Assembly: GCA_943331345.2 (NCBI GenBank)
Contig: CALQLF020000014.1
Coordinates: 1-49,193 of the forward strand
Origin: Candidatus Planktophila lacus
GTDB lineage: Bacteria > Pseudomonadota > Gammaproteobacteria > Steroidobacterales > Steroidobacteraceae
Direction of reading: 5' to 3'
Length of the DNA: 49,193 bases
Of the stretch, positions 6,965 through 19,385 are shown piece after piece (position 1 is the first letter of the stretch; each line of letters starts with the position of its first letter). The notes under the pieces were generated by a model that saw only the letters and a list, made by a program, of their open reading frames with translations, was not told the DNA's origin and made no database searches. The translations under genes and the position numbers were made by a program.

Positions 6965-7970
6965 TGCCGGCAGGCAGTCCGCAGTTGTTCTGCTCCAGCA
7001 CGCGGTCGGCGCGGTAACTGGAACGCACTAATGGCCCAGCAACGACTTCGCGAAAACCAAGCGCGAGGCCTTGTTCACGGTAAGCAGCGAATTCCGCTGG
7101 CGATACGTAGCGGCGCACTTCGAGATGGTTCACGGTGGGGCGCAGGTACTGGCCTAGCGTGAGGATATCCACGCCCGCAGCGCGACAGTCCTGCATGGCT
7201 TCCAGCACTTCTGCATCGGTTTCGCCAAGGCCCAGCATGAGACTGGTCTTGGTGAGCACCGTGGCACGATGCTGCTTGGCATGCGCCAGCACCGCGAGCG
7301 TGCGCTCATAGCCGGCACGTGGGTCCCGCACGGGGTGCGTCAAGCGGCGCACCGTTTCCACGTTCTGCGCGAACACTTCAAGACCGGAATCCACGACCAC
7401 TTCCACATCCGCCATCACGCCCTGAAAATCGGGCGTTAGGGCTTCTACGGCCGTGCCGGGGCGCAAGCGCTTGATGGCGCGTACCGTATCCGCGAAGTGC
7501 CGTGCCCCACCGTCGGGCAGGTCATCGCGGTTCACGGACGTGAGCACCACGTATTTCAGGTCCATCAGTTCTACCGTGCGCGCCGTGTTCTCTGGCTCTT
7601 CCGCATCCAGCCATCCGCGCGGGTTGCCGGTGTCGACACTGCAGAAACGGCAAGCGCGCGTACACACCGCCCCCATCAACATGATGGTGGCCGTGCCGTG
7701 GTTCCAGCATTCGCCGATGTTCGGGCACTTCGCTTCTTCGCAGACGGTAGCGAGGCGGTGTTCACGCACGGTGGCACGGACTTCGTCGAAGCGTTCACCC
7801 GCCGGCAGCTTCGCCCGCAGCCAAGTGGGCTTCAGGCCCACCGGCGACGGCACAGCTTCGCCCTGTACCTTGATGCCATCGCGAATGGCCGTGAACCCTT
7901 GGGGCGTCTGATATTTCTCGCCACTGCGTATGCCGGTAGTGGCTATCGGTATTCCCTTGAATTCGGCCAT
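6957..7970 (-). CDS. lipA: Lipoyl synthase
   Basis: 337 residues from the ATG at 7970. A radical-SAM enzyme that inserts two sulfurs into the octanoyl chain made by LipB. The auxiliary [4Fe-4S] cluster cysteines C77, C82 and C88 ([13 protein letters not shown]) precede the radical-SAM CxxxCxxC C103, C107, C110 (CTRACRFC), and the conserved RSSY lies near the C-terminus. An in-frame TTG at 8003 would add 11 residues; neither start has a good ribosome site, and the ATG gives the usual family length. It is coupled to lipB by an 8-nt overlap and is 42 nt downstream of murU on the same strand. Confidence 0.96.
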
Positions 7971-8012
7971 GGGGGTTAGTGCAACGCTCGGTTGGCAAGA
8001 CAAGGAGCCATT

Positions 8013-8750
8013 CTAACGCCCCAGTTCAGCGTCTAGGGCCGCGAGACGCTCCGGCGTCCCGACATCCGTCCAGCGGCCCGCCCAGTGGCTGCCGGCCATT
8101 TGTCCGGCAGCAATGCAGGCGTCGAGCAAGGGCTTCAGGGGCCGTTTGCCCGCGGGCAAGCCGGCGAAGAATGCGGGGTGGTAGGTAGCGAGGCCGGAAA
8201 AAGTGAAGGTCTGCCCGCCTGCATCACGCGGCAGCACGGCTCGACGCGTGGTCGACGCTGCTGCCGTACCAAGGCCCAGCCCGGCAGGCGCGCCCAGAGT
8301 GAAATCGCCGCGCGGATGCTGCGCCGGGTTATTCACCAACACCAGATACGCCAAGTCGCCTGCTACGGGTGCTGCCGGCGGCAAAGGCGCATCAGTCCAG
8401 ACATCGCCGTTTACCACCGCGAAAGGCTGCGTCGACCCGGCGGAGGGCGCCAGCCAAGGTAGCGCCGCAATAATGCCGCCCGCAGTCTCAAGGGGTTCCG
8501 GTCCTTCGTCGCTATAGCAAAGCGCCAACCCGAAGCGCTCACCCGTGCCCAATTGCTGTGGCAACTGCTCACCCAGCCAACTGGTGTTGATGACTACATC
8601 CGTGATGCCCGCCGCTGCCAACTTCAGCAAGTGCCATTCAATGAGCGGGCGGCCGCCCACCGGCAACAGCGGCTTTGGCGTATGCGCGGTAAGCGGCCGC
8701 ATACGTTCACCCTTGCCGGCGGCCAGCACCATGGCACGACGAATGGTCAC
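8013..8750 (-). CDS. murU: N-acetylmuramate alpha-1-phosphate uridylyltransferase
   Basis: 245 residues. Makes UDP-MurNAc from MurNAc-1-phosphate in the cell-wall recycling shortcut that bypasses MurA/MurB and gives intrinsic fosfomycin tolerance in Pseudomonas. Nucleotidyltransferase motifs are visible: MVLAAGKGERMRPLT (G-x-G-x-R-x-x-P-x-T), KPLLPVGGRPL, LETAGGI, and the metal-binding Asp in VVNGDVWTD. The start is a GTG at 8750, whose GTGA overlaps the amgK stop by 4 nt. That gives VTIRRAMVLAAGKG as the N-terminus, slightly longer than P. putida MurU. The frame is open far upstream, but that part is the antisense-free overlap with amgK and is rejected. The amgK-murU pairing makes the call firm. 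Confidence 0.93.
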   Translation of the reverse strand: MTIRRAMVLAAGKGERMRPLTAHTPKPLLPVGGRPLIEWHLLKLAAAGITDVVINTSWLGEQLPQQLGTGERFGLALCYSDEGPEPLETAGGIIAALPWLAPSAGSTQPFAVVNGDVWTDAPLPPAAPVAGDLAYLVLVNNPAQHPRGDFTLGAPAGLGLGTAAASTTRRAVLPRDAGGQTFTFSGLATYHPAFFAGLPAGKRPLKPLLDACIAAGQMAGSHWAGRWTDVGTPERLAALDAELGR

Positions 8751-15809: not shown

Positions 15810-16640
15810 GTGACTACCTGGGCCATCGGCGACCTGCAAGGCTGCCACGGCGCATTCGTCCGCTTGCTCGAAGCGATCAACTTCTCGCCTGCCCACGACC
15901 ATCTTTGGCTCGTTGGCGACTTGGTGAACCGCGGGCCGCATTCCACCGCCACCTTGCGCGAAGTCATCGGCCTTGGCGATTCCGTCACCACTGTTCTGGG
16001 CAACCACGACCTGCACTTGCTCGCCTTGGCGATGGCGCCAAACTCCGGTAACGGCCTGCGCCCGGGCGATACGCTGGATAAATTACTCGCCGCGCACGAC
16101 TGCGACGATTTGCTCGGGTGGTTGCTGGAGCAACCCCTGCTACACCACGATGCCAAATTAGGCTGGACCATGGTCCATGCTGGCCTGCCACCGCAATGGT
16201 CTATCGCCACGGCACAACGAGAAGCCCGCGCAGTGGAAGCGGCCTTGCGCGACGACCCGGTGGGGTTTTTCAATGAAATGTATGGCGACGAACCCGACAT
16301 TTGGTCGGATACGCTGACGGGTGCAGACCGCTGGCGCTTTACCGTGAACTGTCTGACGCGCCTGCGTTACTGCACGGCAGAAGGCAAGTTATTGCCGAAG
16401 CTAAAAGGCCCACCAGAGACCGCGCCTAAAGATGCCTTGCCGTGGTTTGACGTCCCCAAGCGGCGCGCCGCCAAAGACCGAGTGGTGTTTGGGCACTGGT
16501 CGGCGCTGGGGCTGATGCGTTCGCCCAAGGCGCTAGGCTTGGACACGGGTTGTGTGTGGGGCGGACGCCTGACCGCCGTAAAACTGGAACATACGCACAA
16601 ACTCCCGCCAGAGGAGTGGGAAGTGGTGCAGGTCACCTAG
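15810..16640 (+). CDS. apaH: Symmetrical bis(5'-nucleosyl)-tetraphosphatase
   Basis: 276 residues. Hydrolyses Ap4A to two ADP and also removes Np4 caps from RNA. Metallophosphoesterase motifs run in order: IGDLQGC, LVGDLVNRGP, LGNHDLH, and MVHAGLPPQW. The GTG start at 15810 gives VTTWAIGDLQGC, the correct family N-terminus. Its TAG stop shares the tetranucleotide CTAG (16637-16640) with the TAG of the gene on the opposite strand, so the two coding regions meet with no spacer. Confidence 0.96.
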   Translation: MTTWAIGDLQGCHGAFVRLLEAINFSPAHDHLWLVGDLVNRGPHSTATLREVIGLGDSVTTVLGNHDLHLLALAMAPNSGNGLRPGDTLDKLLAAHDCDDLLGWLLEQPLLHHDAKLGWTMVHAGLPPQWSIATAQREARAVEAALRDDPVGFFNEMYGDEPDIWSDTLTGADRWRFTVNCLTRLRYCTAEGKLLPKLKGPPETAPKDALPWFDVPKRRAAKDRVVFGHWSALGLMRSPKALGLDTGCVWGGRLTAVKLEHTHKLPPEEWEVVQVT

Positions 16641-17332
16641 CGACTGCTGGGGCGCGCAGCGTCGGCGGTGGGTACGGGCGCGAACACTTCGAACGCCAAC
16701 GAGAGACTGGTTCCCGAGAGCTGATAGGGAATGCAGCGCGTATGGTCTTCCATGGCGCGTGTAGCAAACAAAGGCAGCACACGGTCGCGGAACTGTTCCA
16801 GCAATTCGCAGTCGCCTAGGTCGAGCGTTCGCGGCCGGTCGCGGTCGAAGCGCAGTTTGCGCCACTCGCCCGGCAGCGACGCCACAGCAGAGACCTCCGA
16901 CGCGATAGCCGCGCCCGGCACCGGCAAGCGCGGCGCCTCGCGCCCGATGACATGGCCGAAGGGCTGCGCCGTGGCGGCCGGCTGCGGCACAGCGCTTTCT
17001 GCCGGCAAAGCAGTTGCACCCTCCGTTGACGGCTCCAGCGTGGCAAAACGCAGTTTCACGCGCGGGAATTCCGTAGGGCCGCCGTAAAGATCGCCGCAGC
17101 CATAAGTGGCCACTTTCAGGTCTGGCCGCGCACCGAGCGTGCGCAGCAACAAGCGAACCTTGTCCGCCAAGCCATCGCAGGAATACTTCGAGGTGAAGCC
17201 GCTGTAGGTGAAACTGAGCTCGTGTTCTTTCCACCGTCCCGCCACCACCGAATCCGGCAAGGGCTCAGCCGCCGCTGCAGGCTGGGCCAGCAGCAGGGCA
17301 AGGAAGAGCGGCAGGGAGGCTTTCAATGACAT
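16637..17332 (-). CDS. Exported protein of unknown function
   Basis: 231 residues. A clear Sec signal peptide (MSLKASLPLFLALLLAQPAAAAEP, shown here in part: hydrophobic core 6-17, cleavage near AAA-E) leads into a segment with two cysteine-containing strands (SKYSCDGLAD, ATYGCGDLYGG). A proline/alanine-rich linker and a second cysteine pair (LGDCELLEQF, HTRCIPYQLS) follow. Four cysteines suggest two disulfides in the periplasm. I do not recognise a named domain. It starts 5 nt after the folA stop, so it is probably cotranscribed with folA and thyA. It is convergent with apaH through the shared CTAG. Confidence 0.8.
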   Translation of the reverse strand: MSLKASLPLFLALLLAQPAAAAEPLPDSVVAGRWKEHELSFTYSGFTSKYSCDGLADKVRLLLRTLGARPDLKVATYGCGDLYGGPTEFPRVKLRFATLEPSTEGATALPAESAVPQPAATAQPFGHVIGREAPRLPVPGAAIASEVSAVASLPGEWRKLRFDRDRPRTLDLGDCELLEQFRDRVLPLFATRAMEDHTRCIPYQLSGTSLSLAFEVFAPVPTADAARPSSR

Positions 17333-17337
17333 GGCAC

Positions 17338-17865
17338 CTAGATTGACCCGACTGCAGCGTTTTGGTTCCCGCCGTCGGGCAGCCTTACGCGGCGCACGAA
17401 GGAATAGGCATGGGCGTGCCGTTCGTCGGCAGCATGCGCCTCCCGGGAAACCTCGGGCCATGCAGCCAGATCGAAGGCGGGAAAGAAGGCATCGCCCTCG
17501 AGCGTGGCCGCCACCTCGGTCAACTCGAGCACGGTCGCTTGGGGCAGCAGCTGTTTATAGAGTTCGCCGCCGCCAATCACCATCACTTCAGGCTGGTCCG
17601 CCGCAGCCGCGAGCGCAGCTTCCACGGTAGCGAACACCTCCGCGCCCGCAGCGGCGAAGCCGGCTTGGCGAGTCACCACCAGATTGCGGCGGCCCGGCAA
17701 CGGGCGGCCAAGGCTGTCCCAAGTGCGCCGGCCCATCAAGACCGGCTTGCCAAGCGTCAAGGCCTTGAAGTGCTGCAGGTCGGCAGGCAGACGCCACGGC
17801 AAACCACCTGCCACGCCAATGACGCCGTTGGCGCCAATAGCGGCAATGAGCGTCAAAGCAGGCAT
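17338..17865 (-). CDS. folA: Dihydrofolate reductase
   Basis: 175 residues. Reduces dihydrofolate produced by thymidylate synthase (thyA, same operon). Motifs: LIAAIGANGVIG, GLPWRLPADLQHFK with the substrate-binding acid D29, VLMGRRTWDSLGRPLPGRRNLVVTR (NADPH site), EVMVIGGGELYKQLLPQA, and the C-terminal HAYSFVRRVR. The frame is open far upstream because the lysine-rich codons of the preceding SET gene read as E/G-rich in this frame; the ATG at 17865 gives the family N-terminus. It lies 17 nt after the SET gene stop. Confidence 0.96.
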   Translation of the reverse strand: MPALTLIAAIGANGVIGVAGGLPWRLPADLQHFKALTLGKPVLMGRRTWDSLGRPLPGRRNLVVTRQAGFAAAGAEVFATVEAALAAAADQPEVMVIGGGELYKQLLPQATVLELTEVAATLEGDAFFPAFDLAAWPEVSREAHAADERHAHAYSFVRRVRLPDGGNQNAAVGSI

Positions 17866-17882: not shown

Positions 17883-18536
17883 TCAACGGCGGGCGCGCTT
17901 TACTGCAGCCTTCCGCACGGCCTTCTTCTTGGCCGGCTTCTTCAGGGCCGTCTTCTTCAGAACGACCTTTTTCTTCGCCGCTTGCTTGGGAGCAGCGGCC
18001 TTCTTCTTCGCCAATTTTTTCTTGGCCAACTTCTTCTTGCCAGCCTTCTTCTTGGCCGCCTTCTTCTTGGGGTCCGGCCAGTCGAGCAACATGGTGCCGC
18101 GGCACTTCGGCGAACCGCAGCGGCAGCCGAAGATCTGGTCCATCTCGGGCGGGTCGTTCGGGTCACGCTCGATCATGTAGTCGAAGCAGATTTCCTGGCC
18201 CTTCGGAATATCCCGCACGGCTTCCAGAAATACGCGAGCCTTGTCGACGACGCTTTCGCAGTTGGGGTCGCAGCTGTGGTTGATCCAACGCGCGTCGTTG
18301 CCCTTCACGCCACCGTCGATGACCACGCGCGAATTCACAGTGAACAGGAAGGTGTGGTTGTCGTCGTGTGCCTTGTCCTCGTGGCGACGGTCCGCCTCGG
18401 CATGGGAAATGCGGTCACCGACATATTCGGTAATGCGCGTGCCCTTCAGGATATTGGCGGCAGCGAAGACGCCCCGGCCGTGGATACGGGAATTGCGAAC
18501 CACGTAGTAGGGGTTTTTCTGGAAAGTGGCGCTCAT
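17883..18536 (-). CDS. SET-domain lysine methyltransferase with histone-H1-like tail
   Basis: 217 residues in two parts. Residues 1-150 form a compact SET domain: SAM-binding HGRGVFA (19-25), TRITEYVGD, the pseudoknot RWINHSCDPNCE (83-94), and EICFDYM (115-121). A post-SET zinc motif C138-x-C140-x4-C145 follows; with C89 it would supply the four zinc ligands seen in eukaryotic post-SET enzymes. Residues 154-217 are a low-complexity tail with 28 lysines, mostly KKK triplets spaced by Ala, Gly or Leu. It looks like the C-terminal half of histone H1 and of bacterial H1-like proteins, suggesting DNA binding and possible self-methylation. It sits between thyA and folA. The substrate is unknown; ribosomal, histone-like or own tail lysines are candidates. 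Confidence 0.9.
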   Translation of the reverse strand: MSATFQKNPYYVVRNSRIHGRGVFAAANILKGTRITEYVGDRISHAEADRRHEDKAHDDNHTFLFTVNSRVVIDGGVKGNDARWINHSCDPNCESVVDKARVFLEAVRDIPKGQEICFDYMIERDPNDPPEMDQIFGCRCGSPKCRGTMLLDWPDPKKKAAKKKAGKKKLAKKKLAKKKAAAPKQAAKKKVVLKKTALKKPAKKKAVRKAAVKRARR

Positions 18537-18590: not shown

Positions 18591-19385
18591 TTAAACGGCA
18601 ACTGGCGCCTTGATGGCGGGGTGCGGAGCGTAGCCCTGCACCTCGATGTCATCGGCAGTGTAGTCGAAGAGCGTGGCCGGCCGGCGGTGCAACACCAGTT
18701 GCGGCAGCGGCAGCGGTTCGCGCGCGAGCTGCAAATCGGCCTGTTCGAGATGGTTCAGGTAGAGGTGGCAGTCCCCACCGGTCCAGACAAAGTCACCGAG
18801 TTCCAGGTCGCACTGCTGCGCCACCAAGTGCACCAGCAGCGCGTAAGAGGCAATGTTGAAGGGCACGCCGAGGAAGATATCGGCGCTGCGCTGGTACAGC
18901 TGGCAGCTCAGCCGGCCACCCGCTACATAGAACTGGAAAAAGGCGTGGCAGGGCATCAGCGCCATACGGTCCAGTTCGCCCACGTTCCACGCGTTCACAA
19001 TGATGCGGCGCGAATCCGGCTGGGTACGCAGCAAACGCACGGCTTCAGCCATCTGGTCAATGTGCCGGCCATCGGCGGCTACCCAGTCGCGCCACTGCTT
19101 GCCGTAGACAGGACCCAAATCCCCCTCGGCGTTGGCCCATTCATCCCAGATGCTGACGCCCGCTTCTTGCAGACTGCGCACGTTCGTCTCGCCCCGCAGG
19201 AACCACAGCAGTTCATGGATGATGCTGCGCGTATGCACCTTCTTGGTGGTGACCAGCGGGAACCCTTCTGCCAAGTTGAACCGCATCTGCCAGCCAAACA
19301 CGCTGAGCGTGCCGGTACCGGTGCGGTCTTCCTTGCGGTCGCCGTGGTCGCGGACGTGCCGCATGAGATCCAAGTACTGGCGCAT
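18591..19385 (-). CDS. thyA: Thymidylate synthase
   Basis: 264 residues, the same length as E. coli ThyA. Methylates dUMP to dTMP using methylene-THF and yields DHF for FolA. The catalytic cysteine is C146 in [13 protein letters not shown]. Other conserved blocks are [59 protein letters not shown] and [12 protein letters not shown]. It starts 9 nt after the lgt stop. The next gene (SET protein) starts 54 nt downstream, so the block lgt-thyA-SET-folA is probably one transcript. Confidence 0.98.

What the first reader, a model, noticed from the sequence alone, without database searches (positions are those of the whole stretch)
17883..18536. SET methyltransferase fused to a lysine-rich H1-like tail, inside a folate operon
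Seen: a complete SET core (HGRGVF, NHSCDPN, FDY) with post-SET cysteines, followed by a 60-residue tail with 28 lysines, mostly KKK triplets. It lies between thyA and folA, which are usually adjacent. Known: post-SET enzymes methylate protein lysines, and H1-like tails bind DNA or compact chromatin. Inference: this could be a bacterial chromatin- or ribosome-associated methyltransferase that methylates its own tail or other lysine-rich proteins, possibly sharing regulation with one-carbon metabolism.
Basis: partly seen in the sequence, partly recalled or inferred. Interest (0 to 1): 0.75.

Follow-up and report, generated by a model that had tools for sequence, protein, structure and literature searches.

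The report
SET methyltransferase with polybasic DNA-binding-like tail
An environmental bacterium carries a complete histone-methyltransferase-like enzyme with a long, positively charged tail, set between two folate genes; nearly all its relatives keep the enzyme, its charge and its neighbour, which points to a housekeeping protein-methylating enzyme working on the cell's own nucleic-acid-bound proteins.

Summary
17883-18536(-) encodes 217 aa: a complete SET and post-SET domain plus a 61-residue tail with 28 Lys, between thyA and folA. It is family-wide: 57 of 60 same-family genomes have it, and thyA is directly upstream in 52 of 55 fetched loci (3 are at contig ends). A SET-less family member and 12 of 27 readable other-family loci have thyA and folA adjacent, so SET was probably inserted once. 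The domain is under strong purifying selection (42 synonymous, 0 nonsynonymous codon changes between congeners). The tail drifts in length and sequence but not in charge: 53 of 53 proteins measured carry +5 to +37 in their extensions. Arg outnumbers Lys in 18 of 53 C-tails, two have no Lys, and the one non-basic C-tail goes with a +26 N-terminal extension. The tail is best read as a polyanion (DNA/RNA) anchor, not mainly an automethylation substrate. A type III effector role is disfavoured. The substrate is unknown; one candidate is a conserved 14-30 aa lysine microprotein upstream of rpiA (53 of 54 family loci), a long H1-like protein in many sister genomes, though the short form also occurs without SET. 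New variant of a known kind.

The parts
17883..18536 (-). SET-domain protein gene, 217 aa, ATG start, TGA stop
18177..18479 (-). SET domain (residues 20-120): HGRGVF, NHSCDPN, FDY
   Evidence: PF00856 match; invariant residues in 58-sequence alignment; AlphaFold2 core pLDDT mostly above 90
18102..18125 (-). post-SET cysteines C138, C140, C145 (with C89 of NHSC the expected zinc ligands; the zinc assignment is recalled)
   Evidence: all four invariant in 58 sequences
17886..18068 (-). polybasic tail, residues 157-217, 28 Lys, 7 KKK blocks; AlphaFold2 gives a helix at 156-180 and low confidence after about 180
18591..19385 (-). thyA, thymidylate synthase, directly upstream of SET (54 nt gap)
   Evidence: PF00303 406 bits
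17338..17865 (-). folA, dihydrofolate reductase, 17 nt downstream of the SET stop
   Evidence: PF00186 195 bits
19395..20204 (-). lgt, prolipoprotein diacylglyceryl transferase, upstream of thyA in the conserved lgt-thyA-SET block
   Evidence: PF01790 243 bits

Best explanation
It is a housekeeping protein-lysine methyltransferase of the SET/post-SET kind. The gene most likely entered between thyA and folA once, in or before the ancestor of this bacterial family, and has been kept there. The catalytic domain uses S-adenosylmethionine to methylate lysines. The disordered polybasic extension holds the slightly acidic enzyme on polyanions, most likely DNA or RNA, so that it works on proteins bound there. 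What matters is net positive charge at one or both ends, which is why length, repeat type, Lys/Arg choice and even the end of the protein can change. Shown by sequence: domain, conserved catalytic residues, purifying selection, conserved charge, conserved place. Inferred: single insertion, activity, DNA/RNA binding, nature of the substrate.
For: PF00856 91 bits. The best solved relatives are MLL/COMPASS, NSD and SETD2 catalytic domains: phmmer E 2.5e-23; VIA Z 20.5, rmsd 2.1, 145 aligned; Foldseek E 3.5e-13. 22 invariant residues in 58 sequences, including H19, G20, G22, N86, H87, C89, Y120, C138, C140 and C145. G000 against G003 over 152 codons: 42 synonymous, 0 nonsynonymous codon differences, while the tails differ by indels. 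Present in 57 of 60 same-family genomes, 3 of these as fragments. thyA adjacent on the same strand in 52 of 55 loci, 3 at contig ends. In a tree of 119 sequences the family's SETs form one clade, support 0.993, with one unlinked paralogue inside. Extension charge +5 to +37, median +21, in 53 of 53 proteins measured, core median -2. R exceeds K in 18 of 53 C-tails. L137 (G030) has a C-tail of -2 but an N-terminal extension of +26. Precedents: archaeal Go1-SET methylates the DNA protein MC1-alpha, and cpnSET methylates chlamydial Hc1 (passages of PMC3980110).
Against: No activity, binding or localisation data. H1-like basic tails can also serve granules (AlgP and polyphosphate, PMC9239181 passages). 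Relatives outside the order have short tails (68 of 74 loci measured: median 21 aa, charge +5), so a long tail is not needed for the domain. One near-complete family member (G011, 98%) lacks the gene, so it is dispensable at least there. Start codons, and so N-terminal extensions, were chosen from the reading frame.
Confidence: 0.6

Rival explanations
1. Automethylating enzyme: the lysine tail is the enzyme's own substrate, and methylation tunes its activity or DNA affinity.
For: Chlamydial NUE automethylates K209/K210 in its basic C-terminus and mutating them lowers activity on histones (PMC2904774 passages). 28 Lys lie within reach in the window protein.
Against: Lys is not conserved in the tail: R exceeds K in 18 of 53 C-tails; the C-tails of G028 (L135, 25 Arg) and G047 (L152, 6 Arg) have no Lys; one protein has its basic extension N-terminal.
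Confidence: 0.15
2. Writer for a trans lysine-rich partner: the enzyme methylates the all-lysine microprotein encoded upstream of rpiA (own genome: 22 aa), the syntenic counterpart of a long H1-like protein in sister families.
For: Microprotein in 53 of 54 family loci read, 14-30 aa, 605 Lys to 2 Arg, each with an ATG start and Shine-Dalgarno-like site (the script favoured such starts), and up to 6 distinct DNA versions of one identical peptide. A long form (75 aa or more) was seen in 0 of 55 readable SET-positive genomes of this order (51 of family f1, 4 of f15), leaving G064 aside.
Against: Family f15 genus g43 has the 20-24 aa form in 8 of 9 genomes without SET, and SET-less G004 and G011 keep it. 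G064 has a 75-aa form and a fragmentary SET match over cut-off. Of 29 SET-positive genomes from other groups none has a comparable ORF upstream of rpiA; one shows a 23-aa ORF with 5 Lys and no Shine-Dalgarno. The pattern rests on two clades.
Confidence: 0.12
3. Secreted effector that methylates eukaryotic histones in protist hosts; the basic tail is a nuclear or nucleolar localisation signal.
For: The LegAS4 model matches below its cut-off (49.7 bits against 550). BtSET of Burkholderia is described as a type III effector (PMC7819608 passages).
Against: Type III secretin TIGR02516 is over cut-off in 0 of 58 genomes, own and 35 others of the family included; 57 of 58 have matches below cut-off (best 149.7 bits against 238.45), which I take for other secretins. 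Near-universal in the family, conserved beside thyA, strong purifying selection. Other export routes were not tested.
Confidence: 0.05
4. The tail targets the enzyme to polyphosphate granules or ribosomes, not to DNA; the substrates are granule or ribosomal proteins.
For: The H1-like AlgP tail is needed for polyphosphate granule spacing (PMC9239181 passages). A polycation binds any polyanion.
Against: The neighbours that I searched for and found are lgt, thyA, folA, apaGH, rsmA and pdxA; no polyphosphate or ribosomal-protein gene was looked for.
Confidence: 0.15

Closest known systems
Bacterial SET proteins called LegAS4-like (BtSET of Burkholderia; Bordetella homologues)
   Same: Same domain; Achromobacter, Bordetella, Massilia and Noviherbaspirillum relatives are 48-55% identical over the SET part and mostly end in CRGTML or a variant plus a short Lys-rich stretch.
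   Different: BtSET is described as a type III effector (passages); here no type III secretin over cut-off in 58 genomes, a long tail, and conserved thyA linkage. Orthology to BtSET itself was not tested.
Chlamydial cpnSET / NUE
   Same: Small SET protein; NUE has a basic C-terminus. cpnSET acts on Hc1 and NUE on itself, by papers seen as passages.
   Different: Not an intracellular pathogen as far as known, no HC2 match in the own genome, housekeeping-gene linkage.
Archaeal Go1-SET (Methanosarcina mazei)
   Same: SET enzyme acting on the cell's own DNA-binding protein MC1-alpha (passages): the best functional precedent.
   Different: The passages I saw mention no polybasic tail; different domain of life; its gene neighbourhood was not examined.
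Histone H1-like HC2 / AlgP / PhaF-type tails
   Same: Low-complexity Lys/Ala repeats; the window tail aligns to HC2 weakly (11.3 bits), and a congener's SET tail region reaches 40.3 bits against the HC2 cut-off of 40.
   Different: The window tail fails the HC2 cut-off; here it is fused to an enzyme.

Membership tests
SET-domain protein lysine methyltransferase (PF00856) | Significant SET profile match | tested here: met
   91.4 bits, cut-off 22.4
SET-domain protein lysine methyltransferase (PF00856) | Catalytic and cofactor motifs (GxG, NHSC, catalytic Tyr; roles recalled) conserved | tested here: met
   G20, G22, N86, H87, C89, Y120 invariant in 58 sequences; S88 is not
SET-domain protein lysine methyltransferase (PF00856) | Post-SET cysteine cluster CxCx4C | tested here: met
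   C138, C140, C145 and C89 invariant
SET-domain protein lysine methyltransferase (PF00856) | SET fold | tested here: met
   Model residues 1-150: Z 20.5, rmsd 2.1, 145 aligned to MLL1 7w67_C
SET-domain protein lysine methyltransferase (PF00856) | AdoMet-dependent lysine methylation | not testable with these tools
   needs enzyme assay
Histone H1-like HC2 (PF07382) | Match over the family cut-off | tested here: not met
   Window protein 11.3 bits against 40; own genome 0 matches
Type III secreted SET effector (LegAS4/BtSET-like) | NCBIfam AnkI/LegAS4 equivalog cut-off | tested here: not met
   49.7 bits against 550
Type III secreted SET effector (LegAS4/BtSET-like) | Host has a type III secretin | tested here: not met
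   TIGR02516 over cut-off in 0 of 58 genomes, own included
Type III secreted SET effector (LegAS4/BtSET-like) | Other export route such as type IV secretion | not tested
   no search made
Automethylating SET enzyme (NUE-like) | Conserved target lysines in the C-terminal tail | tested here: not met
   R exceeds K in 18 of 53 tails; two C-tails with no Lys

The most novel reading that the evidence does not exclude
A minimal bacterial 'writer and histone tail' pair: the tailed SET enzyme sits on the nucleoid and methylates a 14-30 aa all-lysine microprotein that is the shrunken syntenic counterpart of a long H1-like protein, the long form having been given up in lineages that hold a SET enzyme.
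Probability: 0.12. Interest if true: 0.88.

Novelty: new variant of a known kind. Interest (0 to 1): 0.55.

Why it matters
The papers seen here discuss bacterial SET proteins mainly as weapons against eukaryotic chromatin. A SET enzyme kept through a whole family of environmental bacteria, tied to thyA and carrying a polybasic extension in every protein measured, is a strong case for a native bacterial role and can be tested with one deletion strain plus a methylproteome. If its substrate is a nucleoid protein, lysine methylation of bacterial chromatin would become an experimental system outside Chlamydia. The lysine microprotein upstream of rpiA is a second, independent object for study.

Tried and rejected
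Type III effector: rejected as the main reading. Strain-specific artefact or chance ORF: rejected. Automethylation as the main purpose of the tail: disfavoured. Co-occurrence with HC2: PF07382 matches at E 0.001 in 26 of 98 genomes (5 of 60 in the family, 21 of 38 outside); two of the 5 lie at the SET tails themselves (G003, G042), so HC2 is not a partner in this family. Strict dependence of the microprotein on SET: rejected by family f15 genus g43 and by G004 and G011. All-lysine content as a sign of methylation: not usable, since SET-less g43 microproteins (110 K to 4 R, 8 sequences) are no less pure than g45 ones (72 K to 5 R, 5 sequences; 4 of those 5 genomes have SET), though both are below f1 (605 to 2). 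A shared neighbour that would explain SET outside the order: none found; those SETs have mixed neighbours. Literature: all 10 library searches used. The search for SET domain with thymidylate synthase, dihydrofolate reductase and proteobacteria gave 0 papers; no title or abstract start in the other lists names a tailed SET enzyme beside thyA. Only listings and passages were seen, and most subscription papers are not held.

Rows dropped before counts: the window's own protein (L083), L154 (frame runs through masked bases) and L160 (missed by the pattern) in the tail count; L154, L167 and L168; 18 of 131 sequences in the conservation count, missed by a motif pattern, so one search was used. The 58 sequences were a choice: the window, 43 family and 14 other loci. 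SET-positive G021 has only a fragment at a contig end and was not fetched. Tree labels were given by locus group, three contig-end loci included. Microprotein: rpiA regions were taken for 87 of 98 genomes; G044 had only 187 bases.

Full report
Observation. The ORF at 17883-18536 (minus) is real: 217 aa, SET domain PF00856 at 91.4 bits, the only PF00856 match of the 3.17 Mb assembly. HGRGVF, NHSCDPN, FDY and the post-SET cysteines are present. From residue 157 the tail is 61 residues with 28 Lys and 7 KKK blocks. thyA lies 54 nt upstream and folA 17 nt downstream on the same strand.

Not chance. In the window no other ORF of at least 120 aa comes near it in C-terminal charge (+32 against +15) or Lys count (28 against 6). 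In 57 related loci, 13 of 1185 ORFs of at least 150 aa have 20 or more Lys in the last 60 residues, and all 13 are SET proteins.

Identity of the host. Matching public contigs are metagenome bins with uneven labels, among them a Steroidobacteraceae bin, L005. Its contig length, 45157 bases, is that of G007:C138 in the window's family (f1); other shared lengths are 55702, 36059, 8860 and 5584. I take the host to be a Steroidobacteraceae-like environmental gammaproteobacterium; this is an inference.

Distribution. With the SET part as query, 59 of 98 genomes match: 57 of 60 in family f1 (own included) and 2 of 38 in the rest of the order (G064 partial and weak, G097 34% identical). The three misses in f1 are G004 (83% complete), G059 (62%) and G011 (98%). 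G021, G037 and G044 are fragments at contig ends. Outside the order the closest matches are at 48-55% identity, mostly Burkholderiales by record title, with a few Xanthomonad-type names.

Neighbourhood. In 52 of 55 fetched f1 loci thyA is directly upstream on the same strand; the other 3 end at a contig edge. folA follows within 200 nt in 24 (one overlapping by 26 nt), further away in 23, and was not found in the stretch held in 8. None of the 74 loci L008-L081 has thyA, folA or lgt in the flanks held, which reach 6 kb at most. In 30 thyA loci of 29 other genomes, folA begins within 0-89 nt in 13, among them SET-less f1 member G011 (34 nt, L351); at 377-393 nt in 2; was not found in about 1.5 kb in 13; and 2 end at thyA. 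In a tree of 119 sequences the f1 SETs form one clade (support 0.993) that also holds one unlinked paralogue, L164. The simplest reading is one insertion between thyA and folA in or before the f1 ancestor and a loss in G011.

Selection. Between G000 and G003 the first 152 codons differ at 42 synonymous and 0 nonsynonymous codons; G000 and G002 at 39 and 1. The tails of the same three genomes differ by indels and substitutions. 22 positions are invariant in 58 aligned proteins, including the catalytic and cysteine positions.

Structure. AlphaFold2 on the 58-sequence alignment: mean pLDDT 83, core mostly above 90, a helix at 156-180, low confidence after about 180. The core matches MLL1, MLL3, COMPASS, NSD and SETD2 catalytic domains (Z 20.5, rmsd 2.1, 145 aligned; Foldseek E 3.5e-13). 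Fold similarity does not show activity.

What is conserved about the tail. C-tail length after CRGTML runs from 9 to 95 aa in 53 relatives. Overall K:R is 704:344, and in 18 of 53 R exceeds K. L135 (G028) and L152 (G047) have no K. Only one of the 53 C-tails, in G030 (L137), is not basic; that protein has a 118-aa N-terminal stretch before the SET motif with charge +26. Four others also have basic N-terminal extensions of 33-44 aa. Summing both ends, 53 of 53 proteins measured (own included) carry +5 or more and 50 carry +10 or more, median +21, on a core of median -2. Start codons are my choice from the reading frame. Selection therefore appears to act on net positive charge, not on lysine as such, on length or on place. 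This is what a polyanion anchor needs, and not what a lysine-methylation substrate needs.

How it most likely works. The SET domain methylates lysines with AdoMet; the basic extension keeps the enzyme on DNA or RNA and so near basic proteins bound there. Steps shown: domain, invariance of catalytic residues, charge conservation, conserved place. Steps inferred: gene history, activity, anchoring, substrate. Precedents seen as passages: Go1-SET acts on MC1-alpha, cpnSET on Hc1, NUE on itself. NUE did not methylate Hc1 in its authors' hands, so the chlamydial precedent is mixed.

A possible partner. The DNA pattern for KKKxxKKK occurs at 6 places in the own genome: 4 in this tail and 2 in a 22-codon ORF, MAAKKKAAKKKVAKKKAAAKKK, at G000:C143 (the reversed control pattern occurs once). 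That ORF has an AAGGAG upstream, a hairpin-forming stretch downstream (121 nt, z -5.7), and lies upstream of rpiA. I read the rpiA upstream region in 87 of 98 genomes. In f1, 53 of 54 have a 14-30 aa form, 605 K to 2 R; the one miss has only 187 bases. In 33 genomes of other families, 20 have a 75-201 aa lysine-rich protein there, 2 a 20-23 aa form, and 11 none, of which 3 are short stretches. HC2 matches in G060, G075, G076 and G089 fall on this locus. In family f15, SET-positive g45 genomes have 22-28 aa forms (4 of 4 readable; SET-less G126 has 35 aa), but SET-less g43 has 20-24 aa in 8 of 9 (57 aa in the ninth), and other genera have mostly long forms. The f15 SET that I saw in full (L165) has no tail. 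A long form was not seen in any of 55 readable SET-positive genomes of the order (51 in f1, 4 in f15), unless the fragmentary SET match of G064 counts. This suggests a relation but does not establish one: two clades, a clear counter-example in g43, and no comparable ORF in 29 SET-positive genomes of other groups; L007, whose SET is thyA-linked, has a 19-aa form. A leader-peptide role in regulating rpiA is also possible for the short form.

Comparison and novelty. It is a SET/post-SET protein by every sequence test made; its activity is untested. It is not an HC2 protein and not a type III effector by the tests made. Small SET proteins with basic C-termini are known, so the kind is known. The family-wide polybasic extension, the place between thyA and folA, and the evidence for a native role make it a new variant. 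Nothing in ten library searches, seen as listings and passages, described it.

Noticed in passing
L189:1492-1560 (G000:C143), outside the window: 22-aa all-lysine microprotein upstream of rpiA with an AAGGAG upstream and a hairpin downstream; 14-30 aa in 53 of 54 family loci, a 75-201 aa H1-like protein in 20 of 33 genomes of other families.
   Followed up: partly
L162, L148, L142, L124 and 9 other family loci, downstream of SET: A 2OG-Fe(II) oxygenase gene (PF13640, 65 bits for L162) starting 4-353 nt after SET in 13 of 55 family loci; a kup-like potassium transporter (named by eye) follows SET in 13 others.
   Followed up: partly
L025, L047, L048, L056, L058, L060, L064, L075, L081: SET lies downstream of a topB-like topoisomerase III gene (named by eye) in 9 of 74 loci; in L025, L056 and L058 directly, in the other six with a panB-like gene between.
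   Followed up: no
L137 (G030), about 7680-8459 +: The family member without a basic C-tail has a 118-aa, +26 N-terminal stretch instead.
   Followed up: yes
L164 (G007:C293): Second SET copy in one genome, not beside thyA, nested in the family's clade, with a short tail that is not basic.
   Followed up: no
window 16637-17461 -: Hypothetical protein with no Pfam match at E 0.001, found between folA and apaH in several family loci.
   Followed up: no
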